Shown here: positions 10,457 to 25,901 of the stretch, piece after piece
Layout of the letters: the number at the start of each line of letters is the position of its first letter
How positions within the stretch are numbered: position 1 is the stretch's first letter
Assembly: GCA_016931955.1 (NCBI GenBank)
Contig: JAFGDV010000012.1
Span: 1 to 64,000, forward strand
Source: Candidatus Altarchaeota archaeon
GTDB lineage: Archaea; Altiarchaeota; Altiarchaeia; IMC4; QMZM01
Direction: 5' to 3'
Length of the DNA stretch: 64,000 bases
Notes under the pieces: generated by a model
What the model was told of the DNA's origin: nothing
Database searches by the model: none
What the model saw: only the letters and a program-made list of their open reading frames with translations
Made by a program: the position numbers and the translations under genes

Positions 10457-10568
10457 TTTATCCTAGATTTTCTTGTATTTTGTCCCACTTTTTTGGTTTT
10501 TAAATATAAAATGTAATATATTTAAGTCCTATTCTAACCTATGTTGTTGGAAGTGGGGGTGATTGATT

Positions 10569-11453
10569 ATGAAAAAAATCTTAAGCATTGTTTTCAGTAT
10601 CTTTATGTTGACTGTATATGCTTCGGCGTATACCATCGACGGTGACTTGTCTGACTGGGGCGTGACCCCATTCTCTGACTGGATACCTGGCAGCGACACA
10701 TGTGACTGGATCGTTGAAGACAACATCGACCCAGCCCGCACGGGCGATCCTGCCTACCCTGACTGGACGGGTTATTCTGCTACTGGCGTGCATATTCAGG
10801 GGACTGGTAGTTCATCTTCTACGTACAGTGAACCTGTGCTTAATCTTGTGGATTCTTGGTCAGCGGCTCATGGGGGCCATTATCTGCAGCCTGCTGGCGG
10901 CGAACACTACGACATCGAGGCCTTGTACTTTGACGATGACGCCTTTTACGCATATTTCGCCATTGTGACTTCTATGGATTCTAGCGGCTACACTGACCAG
11001 TATGGTAGGCACTGTGATCCAGGCGACTTGGCTCTTGACTTGGACAATAATGGAGTCTACGAGTACGGCATCTACTTGTACGGAGCAAACCAGGGCAAGA
11101 TCTGCCTTAATCCTACTTGGTCTACTCCAGGTAGTTTTCCGTCGAGTTACCCTGACGGCATAGCGAGCTGCAACAACCACGTCGGTAATGCCACTGTTGT
11201 GTATACAAGTGCTGGTGTCTCTGATAATTCAGTCAGCAACTACATAGTAGAGGTCCGAGCGCCTAAGACTGCCTTGGGTGAACCCATATATGGGCAGATC
11301 AGTGACCTGCATATCACGATGACATGCGGCAACGACATCATCGAGCTCTTAGAGTATACGTGGAATTTCCAGGTGCCTGAGTCCGCGGTCGCCGTGGCCT
11401 TGGTTTCTCTCTTGATTCCGGGCTTGATCTACGTTGCCAGAAAGAGGGAATAA
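10569..11453 (+). CDS. Secreted surface protein with CBM9-like domain and VPE-type archaeosortase tail
   Basis: 294 aa. A signal peptide (residues 1-20, ending SAYT) is followed directly by IDGDLSDWGV, the opening of CBM9/DOMON-like beta-sandwich domains. Several acidic D-x-D clusters (YFDDDAF, LDLDNNGVYEYG) suggest calcium or sugar binding. The C-terminus is VPES, then a hydrophobic helix containing PGLIYVA, then RKRE, which is a tripartite archaeosortase sorting signal. The same signal ends the protein at 25902-26477, and the archaeosortase is at 27556. The ATG at 10569 sits 7 nt after a GGGGGTGAT ribosome site; a TTG at 10563 is the alternative. It is separated from the gene upstream by about 110 bp and may have its own promoter. 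Confidence 0.8.
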   Translation: MKKILSIVFSIFMLTVYASAYTIDGDLSDWGVTPFSDWIPGSDTCDWIVEDNIDPARTGDPAYPDWTGYSATGVHIQGTGSSSSTYSEPVLNLVDSWSAAHGGHYLQPAGGEHYDIEALYFDDDAFYAYFAIVTSMDSSGYTDQYGRHCDPGDLALDLDNNGVYEYGIYLYGANQGKICLNPTWSTPGSFPSSYPDGIASCNNHVGNATVVYTSAGVSDNSVSNYIVEVRAPKTALGEPIYGQISDLHITMTCGNDIIELLEYTWNFQVPESAVAVALVSLLIPGLIYVARKRE

Positions 11454-11498
11454 ATCCCCTCTATTCCTTTTTTATTCTATTCTTCAGTTTATGTTTGT

Positions 11499-11533
11499 TT
11501 TTTCCTTCTATTTCTCGGAGCCAGTCGTCTATT
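11499..11533 (-). repeat. Tail copy A: shortest 3'-end fragment of the 696-aa surface gene
   Basis: In the minus-strand sense it encodes a fragment ending DWLREIEGK, matching the C-terminus of the protein encoded at 15514-17604. It has lost the original stop codon and reads on into unrelated sequence. It is the farthest and most eroded of five copies and lies just before the HicBA operon. Confidence 0.75.
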
Positions 11534-13197: not shown

Positions 13198-13230
13198 ATG
13201 TATTATTTAGAATACAATCGTATTTAAACC

Positions 13231-13285
13231 CTAAGTTTTCTTTTTTCCTTCTATTTCTCGGAGCCAGTCGTCTATTGTTCTTTCA
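13231..13285 (-). repeat. Tail copy B of the 696-aa surface gene
   Basis: Encodes ERTIDDWLREIEGKKKT plus a TAG stop in the minus sense, matching EKTIDDWLKEIDGKKKT at the end of the protein at 15514-17604. It lies between the HTH-NTase/HEPN pair and the broken HepT gene and has no upstream reading frame of its own. Confidence 0.85.
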
Positions 13286-13298
13286 GAGGGTTTTATGC

Positions 13299-13643
13299 TC
13301 AGAAATCGATCTCTTTTATGGTTTGTTGTAGTAGTGGTTTGATTTTCGGCATTCTTTCTTTGATGGTTTCCCAGATAAGTTTATAGTCTACTCCAGAGTA
13401 GAAATGTATTAGTCTGTCTCTCATGCCGGCCATTTCTTTCCATGGGATTTCGGGGTGTTTTCACCGTATTTCTTCGGGGATGTGTTTTGTTGCCTCTCCT
13501 ATGATTTCTAGCTTCCTCACTACGGCGCTTGCGGTTTTGTCGTCTTCTCTGAATTTTTCGAAGTCTGATTTACCTACGAATTCTTCGATTTTTTCCACTG
13601 CCTCCAGTATGTCTTTCAAGTAGATCATATGGTCTCTTTTCAT
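13299..13643 (-). pseudogene. HepT (HEPN, DUF86) toxin gene interrupted by an in-frame TGA
   Basis: The frame from 13643 encodes a DUF86/HepT protein but meets TGA at 13461-13463 after ATKHIPEEIR. Beyond the stop the same frame continues intact (KHPEIPWKEMAGMRDRLIHFYSGVDY) to a second stop at 13299, giving 114 codons, the normal HepT length. The catalytic Rx4HxY region (RDRLIHFY) lies after the stop, so the truncated 60-aa product would lack the RNase site. One base change would restore it. The partner MntA gene upstream is intact, with a 4-bp overlap. TGA is an ordinary stop elsewhere in the window, for example at 9999-10001. Confidence 0.85.
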
Positions 13644-13965: not shown

Positions 13966-14046
13966 CTAGGTCTTTCCTTCTATTTCTCGGAGCCAGTCGT
14001 CTATTGTCTTCTCTACTTCCGCCAGTTTGTGGTGTTCCTGCAGCGG
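13966..14046 (-). repeat. Tail copy C of the 696-aa surface gene
   Basis: In the minus sense it encodes PLQEHHKLAEVEK, then TIDDWLREIEGKT and a stop. Compared with the native tail it has lost two lysine codons. It starts at a CCTAGG palindrome, as copies D and E do, and continues directly into the promoter of the first MntA/HepT cassette. Confidence 0.9.
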
Positions 14047-14091
14047 TTTTATATCCACCAAAAAGAAATAGTTAATTTGGTAGGTGTTTTG
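14042..14091 (+). promoter_or_regulatory. Cassette 1 promoter
   Basis: TTTTATAT at 14047-14054 is a TATA-like element, and GGTAGGTG at 14079-14086 is a ribosome site before the ATG at 14092. From about 13978 to 14077 the DNA is nearly identical to the stretch before cassette 2. Confidence 0.6.
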
Positions 14092-14394
14092 ATGGAAAAA
14101 ATCAAAGTAAACGATAGGTTGGTGAATTTTAAGAGGAAGGTTATTCCCGTCCTTAAGCGAAACGGTGTGGTGAGGGCGGGGGTGTTCGGCTCATTTGCTC
14201 GTGGGGAGGCTAAGAAGGGTAGTGACGTTGATATCCTGATTGAAATAAGGGGTAGGAAGAGCCTTTTTGATCTTGCGAGGTTGGAGATTGAGTTAGAGAA
14301 AAGGGTGGGACAGAAGGTGGATGTGGTTGAATATTCAACAGTTCATCCTCTGCTGAAGGATAGGATCTTGAAAGAGGAAGTGCAGGTACTATGA
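14092..14394 (+). CDS. MntA-like nucleotidyltransferase antitoxin, cassette 1
   Basis: 100 aa from the ATG at 14092 (MEKIKVND). The reading frame is open further upstream, but that part is the antisense of tail copy C and has no start signal. GSFARGEAKKGSDVDIL carries the GSx10DxD motif, followed by the third acidic residue region KVDVVEYST. It is predicted to AMPylate and silence the HepT encoded immediately downstream, with a 4-bp ATGA overlap. It is roughly half identical by eye to the MntA of cassette 2, although the DNA flanking both cassettes is nearly identical. Confidence 0.88.
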   Translation: MEKIKVNDRLVNFKRKVIPVLKRNGVVRAGVFGSFARGEAKKGSDVDILIEIRGRKSLFDLARLEIELEKRVGQKVDVVEYSTVHPLLKDRILKEEVQVL

Positions 14395-14738
14395 AAAAGG
14401 ATGTGCGTGTGTTTCTGTTGGATATCCTGGAGTGTATTGAGAAGATTGAGGAATACACTGGTGACATAAGCAAGGAGGAATTTCTTGGGGAGACATGGAT
14501 TCAGGATGCAGTGCTCAGACGAGTGGAGGTCATCGGTGAAGCTGCGAAGAATATACCTGATAGTTTCAAGAAGACTCATCCGGGTTTGCCTTGGAGTGAG
14601 ATGGCTAGGACGAGGGATAGGCTTATCCATGGATATTTTGGTGTTAATCTTGAGCGTGTTTGGGTTATTGTGAAGGATGATCTCCCTGACTTGAAGAAGA
14701 AGATCAAGAAGATCCAAGAGGATCTGGAAACATCCTAG
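14391..14738 (+). CDS. HepT-like HEPN ribonuclease toxin (DUF86), cassette 1
   Basis: 115 aa. The DUF86 signature is EVIGEAAKNIPDSFKKTHP, then GLPWSEMARTRDRLIHGYFGVN, which includes the Rx4HxY catalytic and AMPylation motif (RDRLIHGY). It is predicted to be an RNase toxin held inactive by MntA-mediated AMPylation of the motif tyrosine. The last 60 nt (from 14679) are almost identical to those of cassette 2, giving the shared end KKIQEDLETS. The stop codon lies inside a CCTAGG palindrome shared with the converging stop of tail copy D. Confidence 0.9.
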   Translation: MKKDVRVFLLDILECIEKIEEYTGDISKEEFLGETWIQDAVLRRVEVIGEAAKNIPDSFKKTHPGLPWSEMARTRDRLIHGYFGVNLERVWVIVKDDLPDLKKKIKKIQEDLETS

Positions 14739-14822
14739 GTCTTCTTTTTTCCGTCTATTTCTCGGAGCCAGTCGTCTATTGTCTTCTCTACTTCCGCCAG
14801 TTTGTGGTGTTCCTGCGGCGGT
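14735..14822 (-). repeat. Tail copy D of the 696-aa surface gene
   Basis: Minus-sense fragment encoding PPQEHHKLAEVEK, then TIDDWLREIDGKKKT and a stop. It is the longest and best-preserved of the displaced copies. Its stop codon overlaps the HepT stop of cassette 1 within CCTAGG. Confidence 0.92.
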
Positions 14823-14864
14823 TTTATATCCACCAAAAAGAAATAGTTAATTGTAGATGTTGTG
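14818..14864 (+). promoter_or_regulatory. Cassette 2 promoter
   Basis: TTTTATAT at 14822-14829 and the following 24 bp match the cassette 1 promoter, then the sequence diverges just before the start codon. The TATA-like element lies 36-43 bp upstream of the ATG at 14865. Confidence 0.55.
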
Positions 14865-15173
14865 ATGGAAAAGGTTGTGCTACGTGATAAGCGTTTAATG
14901 GATTTGGGGAGGAGGATAGTTCCTGTACTTAAACGTAACAAGGTTGTGCGGGCAGGGATTTTTGGTTCGTTCGCGAGGGGGGACTTCAAGAGGGGTAGTG
15001 ATATCGATATCTTGATCGAGGTGAAGGCGAAGAAATTTAGTTTATTTGATTTGGTTGGGCTTGAATTGGAATTGAAGAAGGTGTTGGGGAGAGATGTGGA
15101 TTTGTTGACGTATAATGGGATTAATCCTCTCTTGAGGGATAGGATCTTGGGGGAGGAGGTAAGGATAATATGA
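14865..15173 (+). CDS. MntA-like nucleotidyltransferase antitoxin, cassette 2
   Basis: 102 aa. GSFARGDFKRGSDIDIL is the GSx10DxD motif and DVDLLTYNGINPLL the third-acid region. A GTG at 14862 directly precedes the ATG, so the start is one of the two. It overlaps the HepT gene by 4 bp. It is a paralogue of the cassette 1 gene but clearly older in divergence than the shared flanks. Confidence 0.88.
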   Translation: MEKVVLRDKRLMDLGRRIVPVLKRNKVVRAGIFGSFARGDFKRGSDIDILIEVKAKKFSLFDLVGLELELKKVLGRDVDLLTYNGINPLLRDRILGEEVRII

Positions 15174-15517
15174 AAAAAGAGCCGTTGATTTTTATTAAGC
15201 ACATATTGGGGAGTATTGAGAACATAGAATCTTTTTCTCGGGGACTTTCTAAGAGTGAATTTTCGGGGGATAGATTGAGGCAGAGTGCTGTTATTAGGGA
15301 AATAGAGATAATCGGGGAAGCTGTGAAGAATTTGCCCACAGAATTCACGGTCAAGTATCCTAGTGTGGAGTGGAGCAGGATTGCCGGTACCCGCGATAAA
15401 GTAATCCATCACTATTTTGGAGTTGATGCGGACGTTATCTGGGATATTATAGAATATGATCTCCCTGACTTGAAGGAGAAGATCAAGAAGATCCAAGAGG
15501 ATCTGGAAACATCCTAG
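15170..15517 (+). CDS. HepT-like HEPN ribonuclease toxin (DUF86), cassette 2
   Basis: 115 aa. EIIGEAVKNLPTEF, then the motif TRDKVIHHYFGVD with its catalytic Rx4HxY core, mark a HepT toxin. The C-terminal 19 residues (DLPDLKEKIKKIQEDLETS) are nearly the same as in cassette 1. The stop lies in CCTAGG and overlaps by 4 bp the convergent stop of the native 696-aa surface gene. This places cassette 2 exactly at the native gene's 3' end. Confidence 0.9.
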   Translation: MKKEPLIFIKHILGSIENIESFSRGLSKSEFSGDRLRQSAVIREIEIIGEAVKNLPTEFTVKYPSVEWSRIAGTRDKVIHHYFGVDADVIWDIIEYDLPDLKEKIKKIQEDLETS

Positions 15518-17604
15518 GTCTTCTTTTTTCCGTCTATTTCCTTGAGCCAGTCGTCTATTGTCTTCTCTACTTCCGCCAGTTTGTGGTGTTCCTGCAGTAG
15601 TTTTTCTTTTTTCTGGTGTATTTGTTCCCACCATTTTTCGACTTCTTCTGGGGTCTTTGGCATCCGGTGGTGTTCTTCGGTGGTCTTCTTTATTATCAAT
15701 GTGGCGGCTATTATGCTTACTACCAGCATTACTATTAGCACCTCTGTTATCGGCAGCTCTCCCTCTTTTTTAGGTGTCAATGGTTCTGGGTCTATTAGGT
15801 CTTCTATTCCGTCTCCGTCTGTGTCTTTGTTGTATGGGTTCGTGCCTTTCTGGCTTTCTTCGTAATCTGTTAGCCCGTCTTTGTCTGAGTCTATGAACAT
15901 GGTCTCTGGTTGCAGTGGGTGGGGGTCTATTCCGTCTATCAGCTTGTCTCCGTCTGTGTCGTTTTTGTATGGGTCTGTTCCCATCATCGTCTCATTGTAG
16001 TTGCTGAGTCCGTCCTTGTCTGAGTCTATGAACAGGTCCTTGTGCAGTAACGGGTATTTGTCTAGTGAGTCTATCATCCCGTCGCCGTCTGTGTCGTTGT
16101 TGTATGGGTCTGTGCCTATCCTTAATTCATCATAGTCTAGTATTCCGTCTCCGTCGGCATCGTATATGAGGTCTTCTTTTATGAGTGGGTGCGGGTCGTA
16201 CATGTCTGTTATCCCGTCGCCGTCTGTGTCTACGTTATAGGGGTTTGTCCCGCTCATTGTCTCGTTGTAGTCGCTTAGTCCGTCTCCGTCTGAGTCCGTG
16301 TAGAGGTCTTCTGTTTCCAGTGGGTGGGGGTCCATTGAATCCGGTAATCCATCCCCGTCGGTGTCTTTGTTTGTCTTGTTCGTCCCCATCACCTTCTCCA
16401 CGTAGTCTATGACTCCGTCCTCGTCTGTGTCGTTTGTGTACCCGAATAGGTACATCTTGTTGTCGTTGGCTCCTATCAGTAGTTCGGGTATTTTGTCTCC
16501 GTTCAGGTCCACTATCTTTGGTGTTGACTGTATTGAGGTGTTCAGCCAGTGGCTCCATTTCCTGGTCAGGTTCCAATCCAGCACATATATTGTCCCCTTT
16601 GTCGTGGCCACTATTATATCTTTTCTGCCGTCTAGGTCTATGTCTTCTACTTGTGGTTTCGTTTTTATGGCGCCGTCTAGTGTTGTCTTCTTTTTGAGTT
16701 TTCCGTTGTAGTCTAGCATGTACAGGTTTTTGTCTGTTGACCCGAATATTACCTCTGTTGTTCCATTGTTGTCTATGTTGTTTATCGTCGGAGCCGCCTC
16801 TATCCCTCCCTTCGTTGTGTAGTTCCATCTCCTGTATACTTCGTAGACGTCGTATTCTTTTCCAGTCGTCTTTCTATGCCCTAGTGAATGCATTATTCCG
16901 TCCCCTGATCCTGCGAATATTTCTCTCCCGTTTGTTTCCACCGCTAGTATGTCTCCTCCTGTCTGGTAGCTCCATATTGACAGCATCGGGTATTTTATTA
17001 TGTATACTTTGTTGTCGTCTGATCCTAGTATTATCTCTGGTTCTTTGTCTGCGTCTATGTCTGTTATCTTTGGCGTTGACTGTATTTTGTCCATGGTCTT
17101 GTATTCCCACACGTGTTTTCCTTTTAGGTCTAGTAGGTATATTCTCGCGTCTCCTGACGTCAACGCTATCAGTTGTTTTCCTTTGAATTCGCCTGTCGCC
17201 GCTGCTCCCATTATTTTCCCCTTGGTCGTGTAGTTCCACATATGTGTTCCATTACTGTTTATCGCGTACACTATTCCATCCCATGCTCCTACTATCACGT
17301 CCTTTAGTGTGTCGTTGTTTAGGTCTATCAGTAATGGAGTTGAGGATATGCTTCCCCCTGTCTTGTAGCTCCATTCTTCTCTTCCTAGCGCGTCTACCAC
17401 ATATATTTTTCCGTCTCGGCTTCCGTATATTATCTCCGTTATTGTGTCGTTGTCTATGTCTGCTGTTGCCGGCGCCCCTGTATTCCAGTTTTCTGCTGTG
17501 TGCGTCCATATTATCCCGAATCCCTCTAAACTGAGGTTTTCCTGTGCTGTCGCCTGCATCGTCAGTATCAGCAGCATTATCGTGATTGCTTTTTTTGTCT
17601 GCAT
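15514..17604 (-). CDS. Surface protein with beta-propeller repeats, thrombospondin-3-like calcium repeats and a C-terminal TM anchor
   Basis: 696 aa. Signal peptide at residues 1-20 (core ITIMLLILTMQATA). About residues 28-390 are repeated blades of PQQ/FG-GAP type (for example TADIDNDTITEIIYGSRDGKIYV, recognised by DIDxD and YGSxDGKIYV). About 395-620 hold seven DTDGDGxxD / DSDGDGLSDYNE repeats, the thrombospondin type 3 calcium-binding pattern. A transmembrane helix (TEVLIVMLVVSIIAATLII, about 628-646) is followed by a charged cytoplasmic coiled tail ending EKTIDDWLKEIDGKKKT. It is probably a rigid calcium-stabilised envelope protein. Its 3' end is the apparent target of the toxin-antitoxin array to its left. 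Confidence 0.85.
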   Translation of the reverse strand: MQTKKAITIMLLILTMQATAQENLSLEGFGIIWTHTAENWNTGAPATADIDNDTITEIIYGSRDGKIYVVDALGREEWSYKTGGSISSTPLLIDLNNDTLKDVIVGAWDGIVYAINSNGTHMWNYTTKGKIMGAAATGEFKGKQLIALTSGDARIYLLDLKGKHVWEYKTMDKIQSTPKITDIDADKEPEIILGSDDNKVYIIKYPMLSIWSYQTGGDILAVETNGREIFAGSGDGIMHSLGHRKTTGKEYDVYEVYRRWNYTTKGGIEAAPTINNIDNNGTTEVIFGSTDKNLYMLDYNGKLKKKTTLDGAIKTKPQVEDIDLDGRKDIIVATTKGTIYVLDWNLTRKWSHWLNTSIQSTPKIVDLNGDKIPELLIGANDNKMYLFGYTNDTDEDGVIDYVEKVMGTNKTNKDTDGDGLPDSMDPHPLETEDLYTDSDGDGLSDYNETMSGTNPYNVDTDGDGITDMYDPHPLIKEDLIYDADGDGILDYDELRIGTDPYNNDTDGDGMIDSLDKYPLLHKDLFIDSDKDGLSNYNETMMGTDPYKNDTDGDKLIDGIDPHPLQPETMFIDSDKDGLTDYEESQKGTNPYNKDTDGDGIEDLIDPEPLTPKKEGELPITEVLIVMLVVSIIAATLIIKKTTEEHHRMPKTPEEVEKWWEQIHQKKEKLLQEHHKLAEVEKTIDDWLKEIDGKKKT

Positions 17605-17940: not shown

Positions 17941-18103
17941 GTCTGTATGAGTGCGAGCCTACTATTATCTCTGTTCATCATGTCTATTTCCCTTCGTCTT
18001 CTTTGTTGTTGGCTGCAGTTGTAGGTGATCTTGGCGGGAGTGTGTTTTAGAGTTTCTGTAGGGTGTTTTTTGTTTTGTCTATTAGTTCTTCTATGTTGTC
18101 TGC
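17941..18103 (-). pseudogene. Remnant a: duplicated abiEii 3' end plus surface-protein tail
   Basis: Bases 18013-18103 repeat 18974-19064 with about three mismatches. In the minus sense they read DNIEELIDKTKNTLQKL and a stop (the AbiEii C-terminus), followed by TPAKITYNCSQQQ, which resembles the CTYTCSQQQ that precedes the VPE tail of the intact gene at 24833. The remainder to 17941 is degenerate. Nothing recognisable was found between 18104 and 18244. Confidence 0.7.
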
Positions 18104-18244
18104 AGCTGTTATGTATTGTTGTTCTTTGTATAGCGTTTTGTGGTGTCTCTGTTCTCTGCTGGGTTTTAGGAGGCGAACAATATTGTGTTGTAGGGTGTGG
18201 GGGACTATAGTTGGGGGGTGGTGTCTGTGAACTCTTTTGAGGGG

Positions 18245-18493
18245 TTATTTGTAGATGTTTTTTCTGTGCCCTATCTTTAGGACTAGGATTAGGAGTTTGT
18301 CTTTTTCTATGTCCATTAGGATTCGGTGGTCTCCGACTCTTAGTTTGTAGCCGGGGTCTCCCACTAGTTTGGTGACGTGGGCTTCGGGTCGTATTCTGAT
18401 TCTTTCTATTGCCGAGATTATTCTTTCCTGCTGTTCTCGTCCGAGTTTTTTGTATTGTTTTTTGGCTGTGTCTGAGAAGAAGACGTCGTACAT
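18245..18493 (-). CDS. RelE-family mRNA interferase toxin
   Basis: 82 aa with the RelE/ParE fold: MYDVFFSDTAKKQYKKL, then RIISAIERIRIRPEAHVTKLVG, then YKLRVGDHRILMDIE and KIGHRKNIYK. The basic residues in YKLRVGDHR and the C-terminal GHRKNIY are those expected of ribosome-dependent RelE toxins in archaea. It follows the antitoxin gene directly, with no gap. Confidence 0.9.
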   Translation of the reverse strand: MYDVFFSDTAKKQYKKLGREQQERIISAIERIRIRPEAHVTKLVGDPGYKLRVGDHRILMDIEKDKLLILVLKIGHRKNIYK

Positions 18494-18709
18494 TTATTTC
18501 ATCTCTGCTTTTATTTGGTTGAGTGTGTGGATTTTCCCTGCTTTTATTTCGGCGCGGGCTTCTTCTAGTTCTTTTTTTGTTTCGGCGTTCAGTTCTGTTG
18601 TGTCTTCGATCAGGTTTTGGATTACTTCTTCGTAGGTTTCTCTGTCGGAGAGTTTTCTTTTGTTTAGTGTTTCCTGTAGTTTGTTGCTTATCTGGATCGT
18701 AGTTGCCAT
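18494..18709 (-). CDS. RelB-type antitoxin
   Basis: 71 aa. The N-terminal ATTIQISNKLQETLNKRKLSDRETYEEVIQNLIED is a ribbon-helix-helix DNA-binding unit. The C-terminal part is a charged helix that would wrap RelE. Its promoter is well defined: TATATAAATA at 18732-18741, with an inverted repeat between it and the ATG. Confidence 0.85.
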   Translation of the reverse strand: MATTIQISNKLQETLNKRKLSDRETYEEVIQNLIEDTTELNAETKKELEEARAEIKAGKIHTLNQIKAEMK

Positions 18710-18715
18710 AGTAAA

Positions 18716-18741
18716 CTATAGTATGTTATAGTATATAAATA
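18716..18741 (-). promoter_or_regulatory. relBE promoter and operator
   Basis: CTATA and TATAG arms (18716-18731) form an imperfect palindrome lying between the TATA box (18732-18741) and the antitoxin start at 18709. This position would block transcription when RelB binds. Autoregulation is inferred. Confidence 0.6.
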
Positions 18742-18876
18742 CCCCCATGCATCCATCTGTATCGAGCTGACTGTATGTGTTTATTCTCCAAAGGAACCCG
18801 CATATTTCAACGTTTTTTGTTTGTTGGGGGTAGCATAGGATCTGTTGGCTGTCTAAGGAAGAAAACTCTTTCTCTT

Positions 18877-19004
18877 TTATCTGCGTCTTGTTATCAGGTA
18901 CGCTACTGTCGGCGTCGTCAGCAGTATTAGTATTGTTGTCTCTGTGGTGTTGTATTCTGGCACCTGTTTTTGTCTGCAGCTGTAGGTGATTGTGGCGGGA
19001 GTGT
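18877..19004 (-). pseudogene. Remnant b: decayed VPE-type sorting tail
   Basis: The minus-sense frame reads TPATITYSCRQKQVPEYN, then TTETTILILLTTP, TVAYLITRRR and a stop. It aligns along its length with the end of the intact protein at 24833 (QQQVPEFNTIGIILIILTTP, GIAYLITRKR), but the hydrophobic helix is broken by TTETT and there is no start. It directly follows the abiEii stop codon. The rest of the gap, 18742-18876, shows nothing recognisable. Confidence 0.85.
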
Positions 19005-19007
19005 GTT

Positions 19008-19844
19008 TTAGAGTTTCTGTAGGGTGTTTTTTGTTTTGTCTATTAGTTCTTCTATGTTGTCTGCCATGTCTCTGCTTACTCTGTAGGAGGATATGAAGCC
19101 TTTTATTCTGTCTTCTCTCAGCTTTAGTAGGTTGGTTTGGCAGGAAGTGATCACTTCCTCTGTTTTGTGGCTGCTTCCTCTCCTCCGAAGGTCTCTTCTA
19201 ATCTCTGTGGGTACCTGGCTGTAATCGATCCTCTTTTTCGGATAGTTTATGAGTGCTATCACGTCGAATAGGTCTTTGTAGTGGGCTCGGCCTACGTGGA
19301 CCTTATCTGATCTGGCAGAGATCACAATCTTGTTGGCGAGTAGCATCTCTATTGGAGTTATCTTCTGTTTGAATGCGTAGTCGTCTAATATGCCTGGGAG
19401 CGTGTTGAAGTCTGTTTCATCTGGTTTTCTTAGGACTGTCTTTGTGTTGACTTGTACTTTGATTAGGTGGGCGTTGATTTTTTCGCCTTCGAATCGTGTC
19501 TCTGTTTTGTATATTGTCGGAGCTATTCTGTAGTAGGTCAGGGCTCCTGTGAATCTGTTGTATTTGCCTCCTCTTAGCCCTAGTTCCTCCATCTCTGTTC
19601 GTGTTTCTTCTATTGTTTTCTCTTCTTCGAGGTCGTAGTCTAAGTCCATTGATATCCTCCTGTTTGTTTCTTTTATGAACTGTTGGACTGCTGTGCCTCC
19701 TTTTAAGACGATTTTTTGTCTGCGGAGGAGGTTTGCTGTGTCCATGAGCCATATCAGGAACTCGGTTTGTAGTCGGGGGTGGCCTGTTTTCTCTGATATT
19801 CTTTTTATGTTTTCTTCGTTCAGCAGCTGTTTTAGTTCATGCAT
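19008..19844 (-). CDS. AbiEii-type nucleotidyltransferase toxin
   Basis: 278 aa, full-length AbiEii/AbiGii family. The diagnostic motif KIVLKGGTAVQQF, then RRISMDLDYDL, carries the nucleotidyltransferase Gly-Gly and DxD elements. Downstream are TPIEMLLANKIVISARSDKVH and the KDLFDVIAL motif usual in this family. These are type IV-like toxins that modify tRNA acceptor ends or GTP, depending on the subfamily, and they act in abortive infection. The gene overlaps its AbiEi antitoxin by 8 bp. The last 18 codons are duplicated at 18045-18103. Confidence 0.88.
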   Translation of the reverse strand: MHELKQLLNEENIKRISEKTGHPRLQTEFLIWLMDTANLLRRQKIVLKGGTAVQQFIKETNRRISMDLDYDLEEEKTIEETRTEMEELGLRGGKYNRFTGALTYYRIAPTIYKTETRFEGEKINAHLIKVQVNTKTVLRKPDETDFNTLPGILDDYAFKQKITPIEMLLANKIVISARSDKVHVGRAHYKDLFDVIALINYPKKRIDYSQVPTEIRRDLRRRGSSHKTEEVITSCQTNLLKLREDRIKGFISSYRVSRDMADNIEELIDKTKNTLQKL

Positions 19845-20550
19845 TTATTCCTCCTTCTATGAATTTTCGTTCTTCTTCTGTCGGTTTTTTTTGTGTTGTC
19901 TTTACCTTGTAGCCTTTCTCTGATAGGACTGTGAGTATCTTTTTCAGGTATTCTAGTGTTCCTGTTTCTTGGGCTGCTTCTGTGAGTTGCTTCTGGTTGA
20001 ATCCTCTTTCTATGTAGTCGCATATGGCTGGTATGGCGTAGAACTGTATTATTTCTGGCTCCATTAGTAGGGTTTCTGTTATCGCTGTTTCGGGTGTGGC
20101 TATGTTGGCTTCTCTGTCTTCGAAGACTGTTCTTCTGTAGTTTTCTTTTTTTATCTGCCTCTTTATTGTTTTTATCTCGGCTTCCATTGTTTTGTTGTAG
20201 GCTTTTATCTGTTTATCGTCTTCTACTGTGAGGTAGTATTCTCTGCTGGATGCGAGTCCGTAGTATGATAGTGCTGATGGTCCTGTGATATAGTATCCTT
20301 GGTTGTATGTTTTTTCCATGAAGCCTATGATGTCTTTTCCGTAGGTGTTTTTTATCAGGTATTCTTCTGGTTTGTTTAGTTTGTATCTTCCTTTGGCTGT
20401 TTTTGTTATCATTCCTTTTTTCTGCATTCTGGTGGCGACTACTTTTGCGTTGTTTTCGGTTGTATTCAGTATTCTGCTTATGTCTTTTGTTGTGAATTCT
20501 TTTTCCCCGAGTCTCAGGTATAGTAGGGTGTAGCGTTCGGTGATTTTCAT
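19837..20550 (-). CDS. AbiEi-type antitoxin and transcriptional repressor
   Basis: 237 aa. An N-terminal winged helix (about residues 1-62; FTTKDISRILNTTENNAKVVATRMQKKG) is followed by the AbiEi C-terminal domain with YYITGPSALSYYGLA, the conserved phrase of this family. It represses its own promoter and suppresses AbiEii. Four GTAAC/GTTAC boxes upstream fit the known style of AbiEi operators. The ATG at 20550 is leaderless or nearly so. Confidence 0.88.
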   Translation of the reverse strand: MKITERYTLLYLRLGEKEFTTKDISRILNTTENNAKVVATRMQKKGMITKTAKGRYKLNKPEEYLIKNTYGKDIIGFMEKTYNQGYYITGPSALSYYGLASSREYYLTVEDDKQIKAYNKTMEAEIKTIKRQIKKENYRRTVFEDREANIATPETAITETLLMEPEIIQFYAIPAICDYIERGFNQKQLTEAAQETGTLEYLKKILTVLSEKGYKVKTTQKKPTEEERKFIEGGINA

Positions 20551-20555
20551 TTTTT

Positions 20556-20615
20556 GTAACTTGTAACATAATTACTGTTTTTGTAACTTAAATATCAAGT
20601 TACAGAAATCGTAAC
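20556..20615 (-). promoter_or_regulatory. abiE promoter with GTAAC operator array
   Basis: GTAAC elements occur at 20556, 20563, 20583 and 20611, with a perfect inverted repeat GTAACTT (20583-20589), 7-bp spacer, AAGTTAC (20597-20603). A TATA-like ATATTTAAG lies inside the spacer region. A damaged second copy of 20572-20629 occurs at 21552-21603, lacking six bases that include half of the palindrome. Confidence 0.65.
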
Positions 20616-20632
20616 TATTCCCTGATTTTGAT

Positions 20633-20725
20633 TTACGCGGGTCTTTTTCTCTTCCTCAGGTACGCTATTCCCGGCGTCGTCTTTGTTGTTTGTCTCTGTG
20701 GTGTTGTATTCTGGCTCTTTATTCG
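20633..20725 (-). pseudogene. Remnant c: decayed VPE-type sorting tail
   Basis: Minus-sense pieces read PEYNTTETN and, after a frame change, TPGIAYLRKRKRPA and a stop. This is the sorting-tail pattern of Pro-Glu, a helix with TTPGIAYL, and a basic end. Compared with remnant b, about 13 bases of the helix are deleted. Bases 20671-20695 recur exactly at 21510-21534. Confidence 0.75.
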
Positions 20726-20792
20726 TCAGTGTGGATGCTCCGTGTTGTTGTCTTGCACTGTTTTTTTTGGAGGGAATCAGTTGTGCTTGTTT

Positions 20793-21465: not shown

Positions 21466-21551
21466 TTTTTTGGTAAAGGTATTTTGTTTTCCAGATTTAA
21501 AATGGTTTTCCGGCGTCGTCTTTGTTGTTTGTCTGCATGTGTGGGTGGTTG

Positions 21552-21603
21552 TTACTGTTTTTGTAACTTAAATATACAGAAATCGTAACTATCCCCTGAT
21601 TTT
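21552..21603. repeat. Second, damaged copy of the abiE promoter segment
   Basis: Matches 20572-20629 except for a six-base deletion that removes half of the operator palindrome, plus few substitutions. No abiEi gene follows. It abuts remnant d. Confidence 0.8.
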
Positions 21604-21680
21604 CATCAAATATGCTGTCCCAGGAGTCGTTTTTATTCTTGGATGGGGGTCAGTTCAGGGATTGTTGGTGAGGTGGGTGG
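21589..21680 (-). pseudogene. Remnant d: decayed VPE-type sorting tail
   Basis: The minus sense reads IPELTPIQ and, in a shifted frame, KTTPGTAYLMKIRG and a stop. This again matches the TTPGIAYLITRKR end of the intact gene at 24833. It lies between the HEPN/NTase module and the CHAT operon. Confidence 0.75.
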
Positions 21681-21689
21681 GGTGGATAA

Positions 21690-22291
21690 TTATTTGGCCA
21701 GTTTCATGTCTTTGTCGCCTAGGATTGTCTGGCCTTCGTGGTTGCTCCAGAGTGCCATGATGGAAGCCAGTGCTCCCGGCTCTGTTTCGTTTTTCATGAG
21801 TTTTAGAATGTTTTTCCTCACCATATTTTTGGACTTCTCTGAGGCCTGTTGTGCGCTGTTGCCTTTGAGTAGGGAAACAACGACTAGATTGGAGGGTTCA
21901 AGGAAGAGTTTGGCTGTCTCGTCTTTCAACGGCGTCGCTGATCGTCTCTCATCTATCCAGAAACTGAAGGGGGTATTGTAGCCTATGAAGCATCCGCCTT
22001 TTAGGGTGCATGCTTTTCCCAGGGAGGCTGCTGCGTAGCAGGCTCGGGCGTAGACTATCTTTTTGCTTAGGATGTTATGGTTTACGTCTTCTTCCACCAA
22101 AACTTCTTCTATGCCTCTGATTTTGTCGCCGTATATGTGTTTTTCATCTCCGTGGGCGTTGAAGAAGATCAGCGGCGGATTTTTCTCTGAGACTATATTT
22201 GAGAAATTTTTTTGTGTGAGGCGTGGTCTCTCCAGGTCTAAGACTTTGGTGTTCTTTTTTTTGGCTGACTTAATGACTTTGCTGGCGTCAT
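21690..22291 (-). pseudogene. CHAT-domain caspase-like protein, frameshifted at an A8 run
   Basis: The frame ending at 21690 contains a caspase/CHAT-like core: PPLIFFNAHGDEKHIYG (candidate catalytic His) and VYARACYAAASLG (candidate catalytic Cys), then GGCFIGYNTPFSFW. The frame is open up to a TAG at 22299 but has no start codon. An ATG at 22291, overlapping the upstream gene's TGA as ATGA, is in a different frame. Adding one A to the A8 run (minus sense; T8 at 22255-22262) joins them into a 200-aa protein starting MTPAKSLSQPKKKNTKVLD. So this is a homopolymer deletion, a sequencing error, or programmed -1 frameshifting at A-AAA-AAA. It is the third gene of an operon with two small proteins. 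Confidence 0.7.
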
Positions 22292-22527
22292 GTTTCTGCT
22301 AGTGTCTTGGAGAATTCTCCGCTGGCTACTGCGCGGATGAATTTGAGTTGCATGTCGACGAAGTTTCTGCCGACTTCGTCTTCTGCTTGTATGTGTTTTT
22401 TAAGCTCTTCTTTGGTGTAGACGCCTTTCTCTCCTACTGATAGCTTGAAGTGGCTGGGTACGCTGGTTTCTAGGCGCCATAGTACTAGTTCTTTGACTTC
22501 TTTGTCGAGTTTCTTTTTGTCTTTCAT
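22288..22527 (-). CDS. Small protein of CHAT operon (79 aa), unknown function
   Basis: Charged, mostly helical protein with no recognised domain: KKLDKEVKELVLWRLETSVP, then SHFKLSVGEKGVYTKEELKKHIQAEDEVGRNFVDMQ. It overlaps the upstream small gene (22524-22527) and the downstream CHAT gene start, each by four bases or fewer, so the three are translationally coupled. It may be a regulator or partner of the caspase-like protein. This is inferred from coupling only. Confidence 0.7.
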   Translation of the reverse strand: MKDKKKLDKEVKELVLWRLETSVPSHFKLSVGEKGVYTKEELKKHIQAEDEVGRNFVDMQLKFIRAVASGEFSKTLAET

Positions 22528-22712
22528 ATTATCTTCATTTTCGCCAACTTGTCGATAATCTGCTTACCAAGCTCAGAATCGTTTTTGATTTCGATCATGG
22601 CTGTATTCCATGTGTAGGGTTTGTTTTTTATGACGACTATTATGTCTTTTCCGCGGATGGCTTCTGGGACGTTGGCATATATCCTCATAAATTTGGCTTT
22701 TTTGTCTGCCAT
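22524..22712 (-). CDS. Small protein of CHAT operon (62 aa), unknown function
   Basis: 62 aa: FMRIYANVPEAIRGKDIIVVI, then KPYTWNTAMIEIKNDSELGKQIIDKL. The IYANVP...KPYTWN...IEIKND layout looks like a compact conserved beta-alpha unit rather than a random frame, but I cannot name its family with confidence. It is the first gene of the three-gene unit and carries its likely promoter in the AT-rich sequence just right of 22712. Confidence 0.65.
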   Translation of the reverse strand: MADKKAKFMRIYANVPEAIRGKDIIVVIKNKPYTWNTAMIEIKNDSELGKQIIDKLAKMKII

Positions 22713-23313
22713 AAGTAACCATTAGCATTGGGGGGATTATTAAGCGTAACGCAGACTTGTTGGGCTTCGCTTATTGTCTAACCCGTGGAAAGCCTTGTCC
22801 CCACTTCATCATGTCTATTTCCCGTCGTCGTATTGTTTTGGTTGTAGTATGTTTTCCTGTATTTCTCATATTGTATTACATGAATTTTTAAACTTTCGTG
22901 TATTATTTATCTCAATAATTTTTCCTTTCCTCGATAAATTAATAGAGTTAAATTTTGTGTCATATGTTTTGGTGGGCTTACCTAAATTTTTAGTATTTAT
23001 ATGCGTAGTTCCCTTGTTTTAGGTGGGGTGTGCATAATGGAACTTAGGATTGAGATGAGCCATACTGAGCAGACCGCATGCTTCTCGCTCCTATTGAGTT
23101 GGAGACTCCGAGCAGGTTAAAGACTTTTGGGGCTTATCTTGGAATCTAGGATATGACTTTATTGGCTGAGGCGATAACTCTTAAGATCCCTTATTTTATC
23201 TCTTTGTATGTCGGTGGTGGGGCTCAGAGGAAGTTGATTATTGTCAGGCGGCTGGATGATGTCTTTTTTTTTTGTTAGGCTGCTGCTGTTGGTGTATCCT
23301 TGGTGGGTTTTTT
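22713..23313. other. 600-bp region without an intact gene, with two decayed pieces
   Basis: Around 22808-22828 the sequence shares about 20 bases with 17977-17997, the outer part of remnant a, so it may be another tail footprint. From 23038 a plus-strand frame starts MELRIEMSHTEQ. After a frame change it continues IELETPSRLKTFGAYLGI, stop, DMTLLAEAITLKIPYFISLY. That looks like a decayed gene I cannot identify. No RNA gene was recognised. Confidence 0.4.
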
Positions 23314-24832: not shown

Positions 24833-25654
24833 TCACCTTTTTCTTGTTATCAGGTAGGCTATTCCGGGTGTCGTCAATATTATCAGTATTATTCCTATGG
24901 TGTTGAATTCCGGCACCTGTTGTTGGCTGCAGGTGTAGGTGCATCCTGTCGTGCCTTCATCGTCGTAGTTGTCTGTGGTGTCGCATCTGTTGTTGTCTCC
25001 TGTTGTCACGTCTAGGCTGACTATGTCTTCGAAGCTTCCTCCTTCTTGGTTGTTGTTGCAGAATGTGTTCTCGTTCAGTACGTTGTTGAGCACATGTACT
25101 ATGTATACTCCAATGCGTTGGTTGTTGTTTGCTGTGTTACCTGTTAGTGTGTTGCCGTGTGTGCCTATGTATATTCCGTGTAGTGTGTTTTCGTTTGCCG
25201 TGTTGTTTATGAGTTGGTTGTTGTCTCCTCCTGTTCCTCTTATGTCTATTCCTTCTCGGAATCCGGTTATTTTGCAGTTTCTTATGGTGTTTCCTGTTTT
25301 TCCGTCTAGTATTATGCCGAAGTCGTTGCCGGTGTTGTCTCCGTCTATTGTGTTTCCTTGGCAGTCGAATATTTTGTTGTTGAAGCCTGCTGGGCTGTTG
25401 ATGCATGTTCCTACGTAGTTGTTTACTGTTATTGTTCCTACGTAGTTTACTTGGCTGTTGCAGTTTATATTGTCGTTTAGGGCTGCTGTGCAGTCGATGC
25501 AGGCGTCTGTGTTGCTTCCTCCATTTGTTGTTGTGCCGTCTCCGCAGTTGCATACTCCGCATCCTATTTCTGTGTAGGCGTTTACGGTGGCCATCATTAT
25601 CAACAGCATTGTTATTATTGTCGTTATCTTTTCTTTGTTTTTGTTTGTTTTCAT
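24833..25654 (-). CDS. Secreted parallel beta-helix protein with VPE-type archaeosortase tail
   Basis: 273 aa from the ATG at 25654 (MKTNKNKEKITTIITMLLI; signal peptide ending VNAYT). The frame upstream to 25897 is open but low-complexity and unlikely to be translated. After a cysteine-rich start (CGVCNCGDGTT, CIDCTAALND), it has right-handed beta-helix repeats of PbH1/NosD type (NTIRNCKITGFREGIDI, NQLINNTANENTLHGIYI, NTLTGNTANNNQRIGVYI). The C-terminus CSQQQVPEFN, hydrophobic TIGIILIILTTPGIAYLI, TRKR is a sorting signal for the archaeosortase at 27556. It is the intact source of the decayed tails a-d and heads the second module array. Confidence 0.85.
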   Translation of the reverse strand: MKTNKNKEKITTIITMLLIMMATVNAYTEIGCGVCNCGDGTTTNGGSNTDACIDCTAALNDNINCNSQVNYVGTITVNNYVGTCINSPAGFNNKIFDCQGNTIDGDNTGNDFGIILDGKTGNTIRNCKITGFREGIDIRGTGGDNNQLINNTANENTLHGIYIGTHGNTLTGNTANNNQRIGVYIVHVLNNVLNENTFCNNNQEGGSFEDIVSLDVTTGDNNRCDTTDNYDDEGTTGCTYTCSQQQVPEFNTIGIILIILTTPGIAYLITRKR

Positions 25655-25901
25655 GGTGTTTATATTTGTATTCTGTTCTTTATAAGGGGTTTTTTTGTTT
25701 TGCTTTTTAAGCTTTGGTTCGTAATATTTTTGTGTATGGCGTTTTGTCTGTGGGTGGTGTGGTATAGTGTGCGTTGTTTTTTTGGTTTTTTTATACATTG
25801 GTTTGCTTTTTAAAGGCGAAATCCCATATATTTGTATCTTATTTAGGCGAGAAAGTACGTTATTTATTTGAAACAAGTTTGAGGTGACGCAAAACAAAAA
25901 A

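What the first reader, a model, noticed from the sequence alone, without database searches (positions are those of the whole stretch)
18013..19064. RelBE insertion duplicated the abiEii 3' end together with the surface tail
18013-18103 and 18974-19064 are 91-bp repeats with about three mismatches. Each contains the last 18 codons of abiEii plus the start of the sorting-tail remnant, and RelBE lies between them. The copied unit therefore crossed two older elements, showing that RelBE arrived after abiE and that the copied segment is defined by position, not by gene identity.
Basis: seen in the sequence. Interest (0 to 1): 0.7.

Follow-up and report, generated by a model that had tools for sequence, protein, structure and literature searches.

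The report
Toxin-antitoxin insertions duplicating neighbouring gene ends
A small toxin-antitoxin pair in an archaeal genome is flanked by two copies of the end of its neighbouring gene, and the same scar (a 30-170 base copy of whatever lay at the insertion point) brackets many other such pairs in archaea and bacteria, which suggests how these "selfish" genes spread and pile up without transposon machinery.

Summary
The repeat is real: 18013-18103 and 18974-19064 match without gaps with exactly three mismatches (100 nt at 95% when extended). It holds the last 18 codons and stop of an AbiEii-type toxin gene plus the start of a surface-protein tail, and a RelE/ParE-type toxin-antitoxin (TA) pair lies between the copies. 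The pattern is not unique. In a second array (11.5-15.5 kb), MNT-HEPN modules only partly alike share near-identical ends: the last ~20 HEPN codons plus a copy of the neighbouring gene's 3' end. A relative has that locus without the array. Elsewhere, bare TA modules are bracketed by 32-173 bp direct repeats, often copied from an adjacent gene's end: 11 of 69 MNT loci against about 2 expected; 15 of 53 TA loci against 0 of 20 acetyltransferase loci. This matches "insertion with long target duplication", described for restriction-modification systems; I found no report for TA modules. RelBE-after-abiE is the simplest reading but unproved: no strain with abiE and without relBE at this site was available, and the tail side of the repeat has a different history from the abiEii side.

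The parts
18004..18103 (-). Distal copy of the repeat: abiEii last 18 codons and stop (18047-18103) plus tail start, followed by a shortened tail (17974-18019)
18965..19064 (-). Proximal copy: 3' end of the full-length abiEii gene plus tail start
18096..18109 (-). Junction: ACAGCTGCAGACAA matches tail sequence; its last 8 nt (GCAGACAA) also match abiEii, where the copy begins
18104..18964 (-). Segment between the copies (861 bp): rest of tail, intergenic, RelBE, spacer; no recombinase gene, no terminal inverted repeats
18245..18493 (-). RelE/ParE-superfamily toxin
   Evidence: PF05016 41.3 bits, cut-off 23; NCBIfam RelE_StbE below cut-off
18494..18709 (-). Putative antitoxin partner
   Evidence: only sub-cut-off Pfam matches; position in operon
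18886..18974 (-). Rest of the surface-protein-like tail (VPEYNTTETTILILLTTPTVAYLITRRR*)
19008..19844 (-). AbiEii-type toxin gene
   Evidence: PF08843 41.6 bits, cut-off 22.5
19837..20550 (-). AbiEi-like partner gene, named by position and by co-occurrence with AbiEii in G011 and G004
20656..20727 (-). Tail remnant upstream of AbiE
21507..21640 (-). Tail remnants and inverted-repeat block upstream of MNT-HEPN; block shared with 20572-20632 (87%)
22805..22848 (-). Tail remnant similar to 17974-18019 (85% over 46 nt)
24833..25897 (-). Surface-type beta-helix gene whose 3' end resembles the tail copies
14677..14816 (+). Array 2 linker: last ~20 HEPN codons plus copy of host gene 3' end; 97% to 15456-15595
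15456..15595 (+). Array 2: same unit at the native end of host gene 15514-17604
13973..14099 (+). Array 2: host tail copy plus promoter region; 95% to 14748-14872
13230..13278 (-). Array 2: short host tail copy
11494..11533 (-). Array 2: short host tail copy
15514..17604 (-). Host gene of array 2 (beta-propeller and TSP3 repeats); ortholog in G002 without the array

Best explanation
A small RelE/ParE-type TA module was added just downstream of abiEii by insertion with long target duplication: the segment at the target point (abiEii 3' end with tail start) ended up on both sides of the newcomer, so abiEii stayed whole. No transposase or integrase lies in the insert. The same process, repeated at one place, built the nested TA arrays here, and it acts on TA modules in other archaea and bacteria. 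Shown: the repeats, their bounds, their origin from neighbouring genes at many loci, the excess over controls, and the array-free locus in a relative. Inferred: the order of events, and that the join used tail homology at one end and the 8-nt GCAGACAA overlap at the other (template switching or homology-aided illegitimate joining). Addiction by the TA pair would then protect the insertion from loss.
For: Exact repeat around RelBE. Same unit composition in array 2: HEPN end plus host gene end, 140 bp at 97%, around cores that match far less. G002 has the array 2 locus with 80 bp instead of 5 kb. Single modules elsewhere bracketed by copies of a neighbouring gene end: L093, L010, L079, L133, L226, L237, L123. 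Excess over controls: 11/69 against 2.07 expected, 15/53 against 0/20. Inserts are TA operons with little else and no shared inverted repeats. Copies are local, not dispersed.
Against: No strain with abiE and without relBE at this locus was found. Tail sides of the two copies differ more than the abiEii sides. The segment between the copies includes a tail of its own, so its left end is not foreign sequence. Most TA loci show no bracketing repeat, and several counted repeats are short. The physical step that makes the copy is not shown.
Confidence: 0.62

Rival explanations
1. Unequal illegitimate crossover between two versions of the array, one with RelBE and one without, at the shared GCAGACAA (tail of one, abiEii end of the other). 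The duplication is then a by-product of recombination between arrays, not of insertion.
For: 8-nt overlap at the junction, with 6 further nt of tail sequence on its far side; the two tails differ; several tail copies offer partners.
Against: Needs a prior RelBE insertion in a sister array; does not explain isolated TA modules bracketed by copies of unrelated single-copy genes.
Confidence: 0.22
2. Site-specific integration of a mobile cassette, with the repeats as attachment sites and a recombinase acting in trans.
For: Repeats often cover gene 3' ends, as attachment sites do (general knowledge).
Against: Repeat sequences differ at every locus and range from 32 to 173 bp; no recombinase or shared terminal inverted repeat in inserts.
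Confidence: 0.06
3. Tandem duplication of a whole toxin or host gene followed by decay of all but its end.
For: Array 2 units are partly tandem; TA duplications are known in archaea (PMC2701414).
Against: Near-identity within sharp bounds and none beyond; beyond the distal repeat only weak AbiEii similarity; unrelated modules share linkers.
Confidence: 0.06
4. Assembly artefact in a draft genome.
For: The genome is a draft in 46 contigs.
Against: Copies differ at five positions and have distinct flanks; the same pattern occurs in many independent genomes.
Confidence: 0.02

Closest known systems
Insertion with long target duplication of restriction-modification systems (Nobusato et al. 2000, Gene 259:99; Furuta et al. 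2010; as summarised in PMC3874152, PMC1643837, PMC3031569)
   Same: Addictive gene pair inserted without a linked mobile element; long, variable direct repeat of target sequence of order 100 bp.
   Different: Here the inserts are TA modules, in archaea as well as bacteria, and insertions are stacked at one place so that the copied unit includes the end of the previous toxin.
TA islands (Makarova et al. 2009, PMC2701414)
   Same: Clusters of unrelated TA pairs that tandem duplication does not explain.
   Different: That paper offers preferential incorporation or transfer of cassettes; here the clusters carry sequence scars that point to stepwise insertion.
Homology-facilitated illegitimate recombination (from general knowledge, not tested)
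   Same: One homologous anchor plus one short-overlap join would fit the two ends of the RelBE segment.
   Different: Described for incoming DNA in transformation; nothing here tests it in this archaeon.
Integron-type cassette arrays (from general knowledge)
   Same: Unrelated small modules in series with related sequence between them.
   Different: The linkers are copies of local gene ends, not recombination sites, and are absent from the rest of the genome.

Membership tests
Insertion with long target duplication | Direct repeats of order 100 bp on both sides of the insert | tested here: met
   100 bp at 95% here; 32-173 bp at other loci
Insertion with long target duplication | Repeat derived from target sequence, single copy in a relative without the insert | tested here: inconclusive
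   Array 2 locus empty in G002 and the L079 gene without second piece in relatives; no empty site for RelBE itself
Insertion with long target duplication | No linked mobile element or terminal inverted repeats | tested here: met
Insertion with long target duplication | Insert is a restriction-modification system | tested here: not met
   Insert is a TA pair; hence called a variant, not a member in the strict published sense
AbiEii toxin (PF08843) | Pfam match above cut-off | tested here: met
   41.6 against 22.5 bits
RelE/ParE toxin (PF05016) | Pfam match above cut-off | tested here: met
   41.3 against 23 bits
RelB-type antitoxin | Profile match above cut-off | tested here: not met
   Only sub-cut-off matches to DUF7557 and Unstab_antitox; partner role inferred from position
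PEF-CTERM sorting tail (TIGR03024) | NCBIfam match above cut-off | tested here: not met
   Surface gene 24833-25897 scores 11.2 against 23 bits; isolated tail peptide no match. It only resembles one

The most novel reading that the evidence does not exclude
TA modules across archaea and bacteria spread as bare two-gene units by an uncharacterised, recombinase-free insertion process that duplicates 30-170 bp of target, spares the target gene, and by repeating at one place grows TA islands in which a newcomer's toxin can take over the 3' end of its predecessor.
Probability: 0.35. Interest if true: 0.8.

Novelty: new variant of a known kind. Interest (0 to 1): 0.58.

Why it matters
How TA modules enter chromosomes without mobility genes of their own, and why unrelated TA pairs cluster, is not settled (PMC2701414 leaves the clustering open). 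A readable scar, a copy of the target end on both sides, orders insertions, marks exact module boundaries, links TA mobility to the pattern known for restriction-modification systems, and can be counted across genomes.

Tried and rejected
Paralogous-toxin origin of the repeat: rejected, since the identity runs past the stop codon and the C-terminus is native to AbiEii. abiEii's last codons borrowed from the surface gene: rejected for the same reason, although a gapped alignment to 24842-25028 runs weakly into them. Dispersed mobile repeat: rejected, all tail copies lie in one stretch of one contig. Shared terminal inverted repeats in inserts: none. Whole decayed abiEii copy beyond the distal repeat: not supported. 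Furuta et al. 2010 is not in the library. L162 is doubtful because its repeats are palindromic and may be a dispersed element; L109, L194, L210 and L213 rest on short repeats (27-32 bp). L070's repeat comes from a repeat-rich gene.

Full report
Observation. The two 91-base segments are as described: gap-free, three mismatches, sharp right edge; they extend to 100 nt at 95%. On the minus strand each copy reads the last 18 codons of the AbiEii-type gene (ADNIEELIDKTKNTLQKL*), its stop, and the beginning of a tail that, in the copy next to abiEii, runs on as TYSCRQKQVPEYNTTETTILILLTTPTVAYLITRRR*. The tail resembles the 3' end of the beta-helix surface gene 24833-25897 (80% over 103 nt). A RelE/ParE-type toxin and its partner lie between the copies. 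All five mismatches of the 100 columns fall in the 28 tail-side columns, none in the 72 abiEii-side columns (0.0013 if evenly spread, a post hoc test).

Whose end is it? AbiEii homologs in two genomes of the same family (60% and 56% identity) align to the query's end, and their C-termini (SSYRVARDM...LIDNSKSILEEL; SSYKVSEEV...) resemble this one. The 18 codons therefore belong to abiEii and were copied with the tail start. These two abiE loci have no RelBE beside them and no such repeat, but their surroundings differ, so they are not a clean empty site.

Surroundings. The stretch 11.5-24.8 kb is rich in TA modules, in two arrays. Array 1 (18-24.8 kb) holds RelBE, AbiE, MNT-HEPN, a two-gene cassette without Pfam match and an AAA/DUF4143 ATPase, with tail remnants at 17974-18103, 18886-19071, 20656-20727, 21507-21640 and 22805-22848. 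AbiE and MNT-HEPN, unrelated modules, share an upstream inverted-repeat block (20572-20632 / 21552-21606, 87%) next to tail remnants. Array 2 (11.5-15.5 kb) holds HicBA and four MNT-HEPN pairs, separated by copies of the 3' end of the surface gene 15514-17604 at 11494, 13230, 13973, 14734 and 15513. The copies occur nowhere else in the 1.55-Mb genome.

The key parallel. Aligning the two neighbouring MNT-HEPN units of array 2 shows cores in which about 55-75% of columns match per 60-column row, then near-identity through the last ~20 HEPN codons and the host gene's 3' end (140 bp at 97%). This is the abiEii case again: the copied unit is the end of the previous toxin plus the end of the host gene.

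Empty locus. G002 (same family) has the 1423-aa, 159-aa, 696-aa and DUF1616 orthologs in the same order with only 80 bp where the window has 5 kb of array 2. Part of that 5 kb is a further surface gene (10563-11453), so not all of it need be TA insertion. In the window's genome, outside the window, a MNT-HEPN pair near 71.6 kb lies between two copies (53 bp, 96%) of the 3' end of a gene. Related genes were found in nine other genomes of the family, as partial or nearly full-length matches; in the loci fetched, no second 3' piece and no clear MNT-HEPN pair was detected (one weak MNT hit).

Generality. Among HepT loci of the family 7 of 20, ParE loci of the family 6 of 14 and AbiEii loci of the class 2 of 19 are bracketed by direct repeats (at least 25 bp, 85%), against 0 of 20 acetyltransferase loci (pooled Fisher p=0.004, or 0.016 without the window's own loci). 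DNA methyltransferase loci, the known case, give 3 of 25 with a slightly wider limit. In a separate set of MNT loci from public genomes, 11 of 69 usable loci are bracketed against 2.07 expected from control positions in the same loci (none of 20,000 permutations reached 11). The repeats are often local gene ends: the 3' end of a preceding gene (L093 57 bp 98%, L010 115 bp 97%, L237), an alaS-like 3' end (L133, 124 bp), the start of an epimerase-like gene (L226), and, in L123, the last HEPN codons plus the start of the next gene. In 18 cases examined the inserts are TA operons with at most about 260 bp more on either side and no shared terminal inverted repeats. Caveats: several counted repeats are short, some loci are not independent, and the gene names alaS and epimerase are my reading of the sequence, not a profile search.

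Mechanism. [quoted passage not shown] It leaves the target gene whole, which may explain why such insertions survive; an addictive module then resists loss. How the copy arises is not shown. At the RelBE site the distal junction (ACAGCTGCAGACAA) belongs to tail sequence on one side and abiEii on the other with an 8-nt overlap, and the two tails differ. This points to joining by tail homology at one end and a short overlap at the other, by template switching or illegitimate recombination. An unequal crossover between arrays with and without RelBE would give the same product here and cannot be excluded.

Known or new. Long target duplication is known for restriction-modification systems; full-text searches for TA modules with target duplication or direct repeats found no such report, though I read only a few of the papers listed, the library is partial, and Furuta et al. 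2010 could not be read. Makarova et al. 2009 found TA islands that tandem duplication cannot explain. I rate this a new variant of a known kind.

Noticed in passing
window 13323-13643 (-): The HepT-type HEPN gene of array 2 carries an in-frame TGA, so this module looks decayed.
   Followed up: no
window 22288-22712 (-): Two overlapping small ORFs (79 and 62 aa) without Pfam match sit in array 1 where the other cassettes are TA pairs; possibly an unrecognised TA pair.
   Followed up: no
window 20572-20632 and 21552-21606: An inverted-repeat block (87% identical) lies upstream of both AbiE and MNT-HEPN, two unrelated modules; perhaps a promoter or operator shared through the array.
   Followed up: partly
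L123 1236-2962: Woesearchaeota contig with three MNT-HEPN-like units in a row, each followed by a full or partial copy of the 5' end of the next host gene.
   Followed up: partly
L260 and L266: DNA methyltransferase loci in the same class bracketed by 82-bp (99%) and 70-bp (96%) direct repeats, the known restriction-modification pattern.
   Followed up: partly
L162 173-262 and 1307-1396: A MNT-HEPN pair in an uncultured bacterium sits between 99%-identical 90-bp repeats with palindromic ends, perhaps a dispersed element rather than a target copy.
   Followed up: no
G000 contig C23, about 70.7-72.3 kb (outside the window; L079, L244): Another MNT-HEPN pair in the same genome between two copies of a neighbouring gene's 3' end (53 bp, 96%).
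   Followed up: yes
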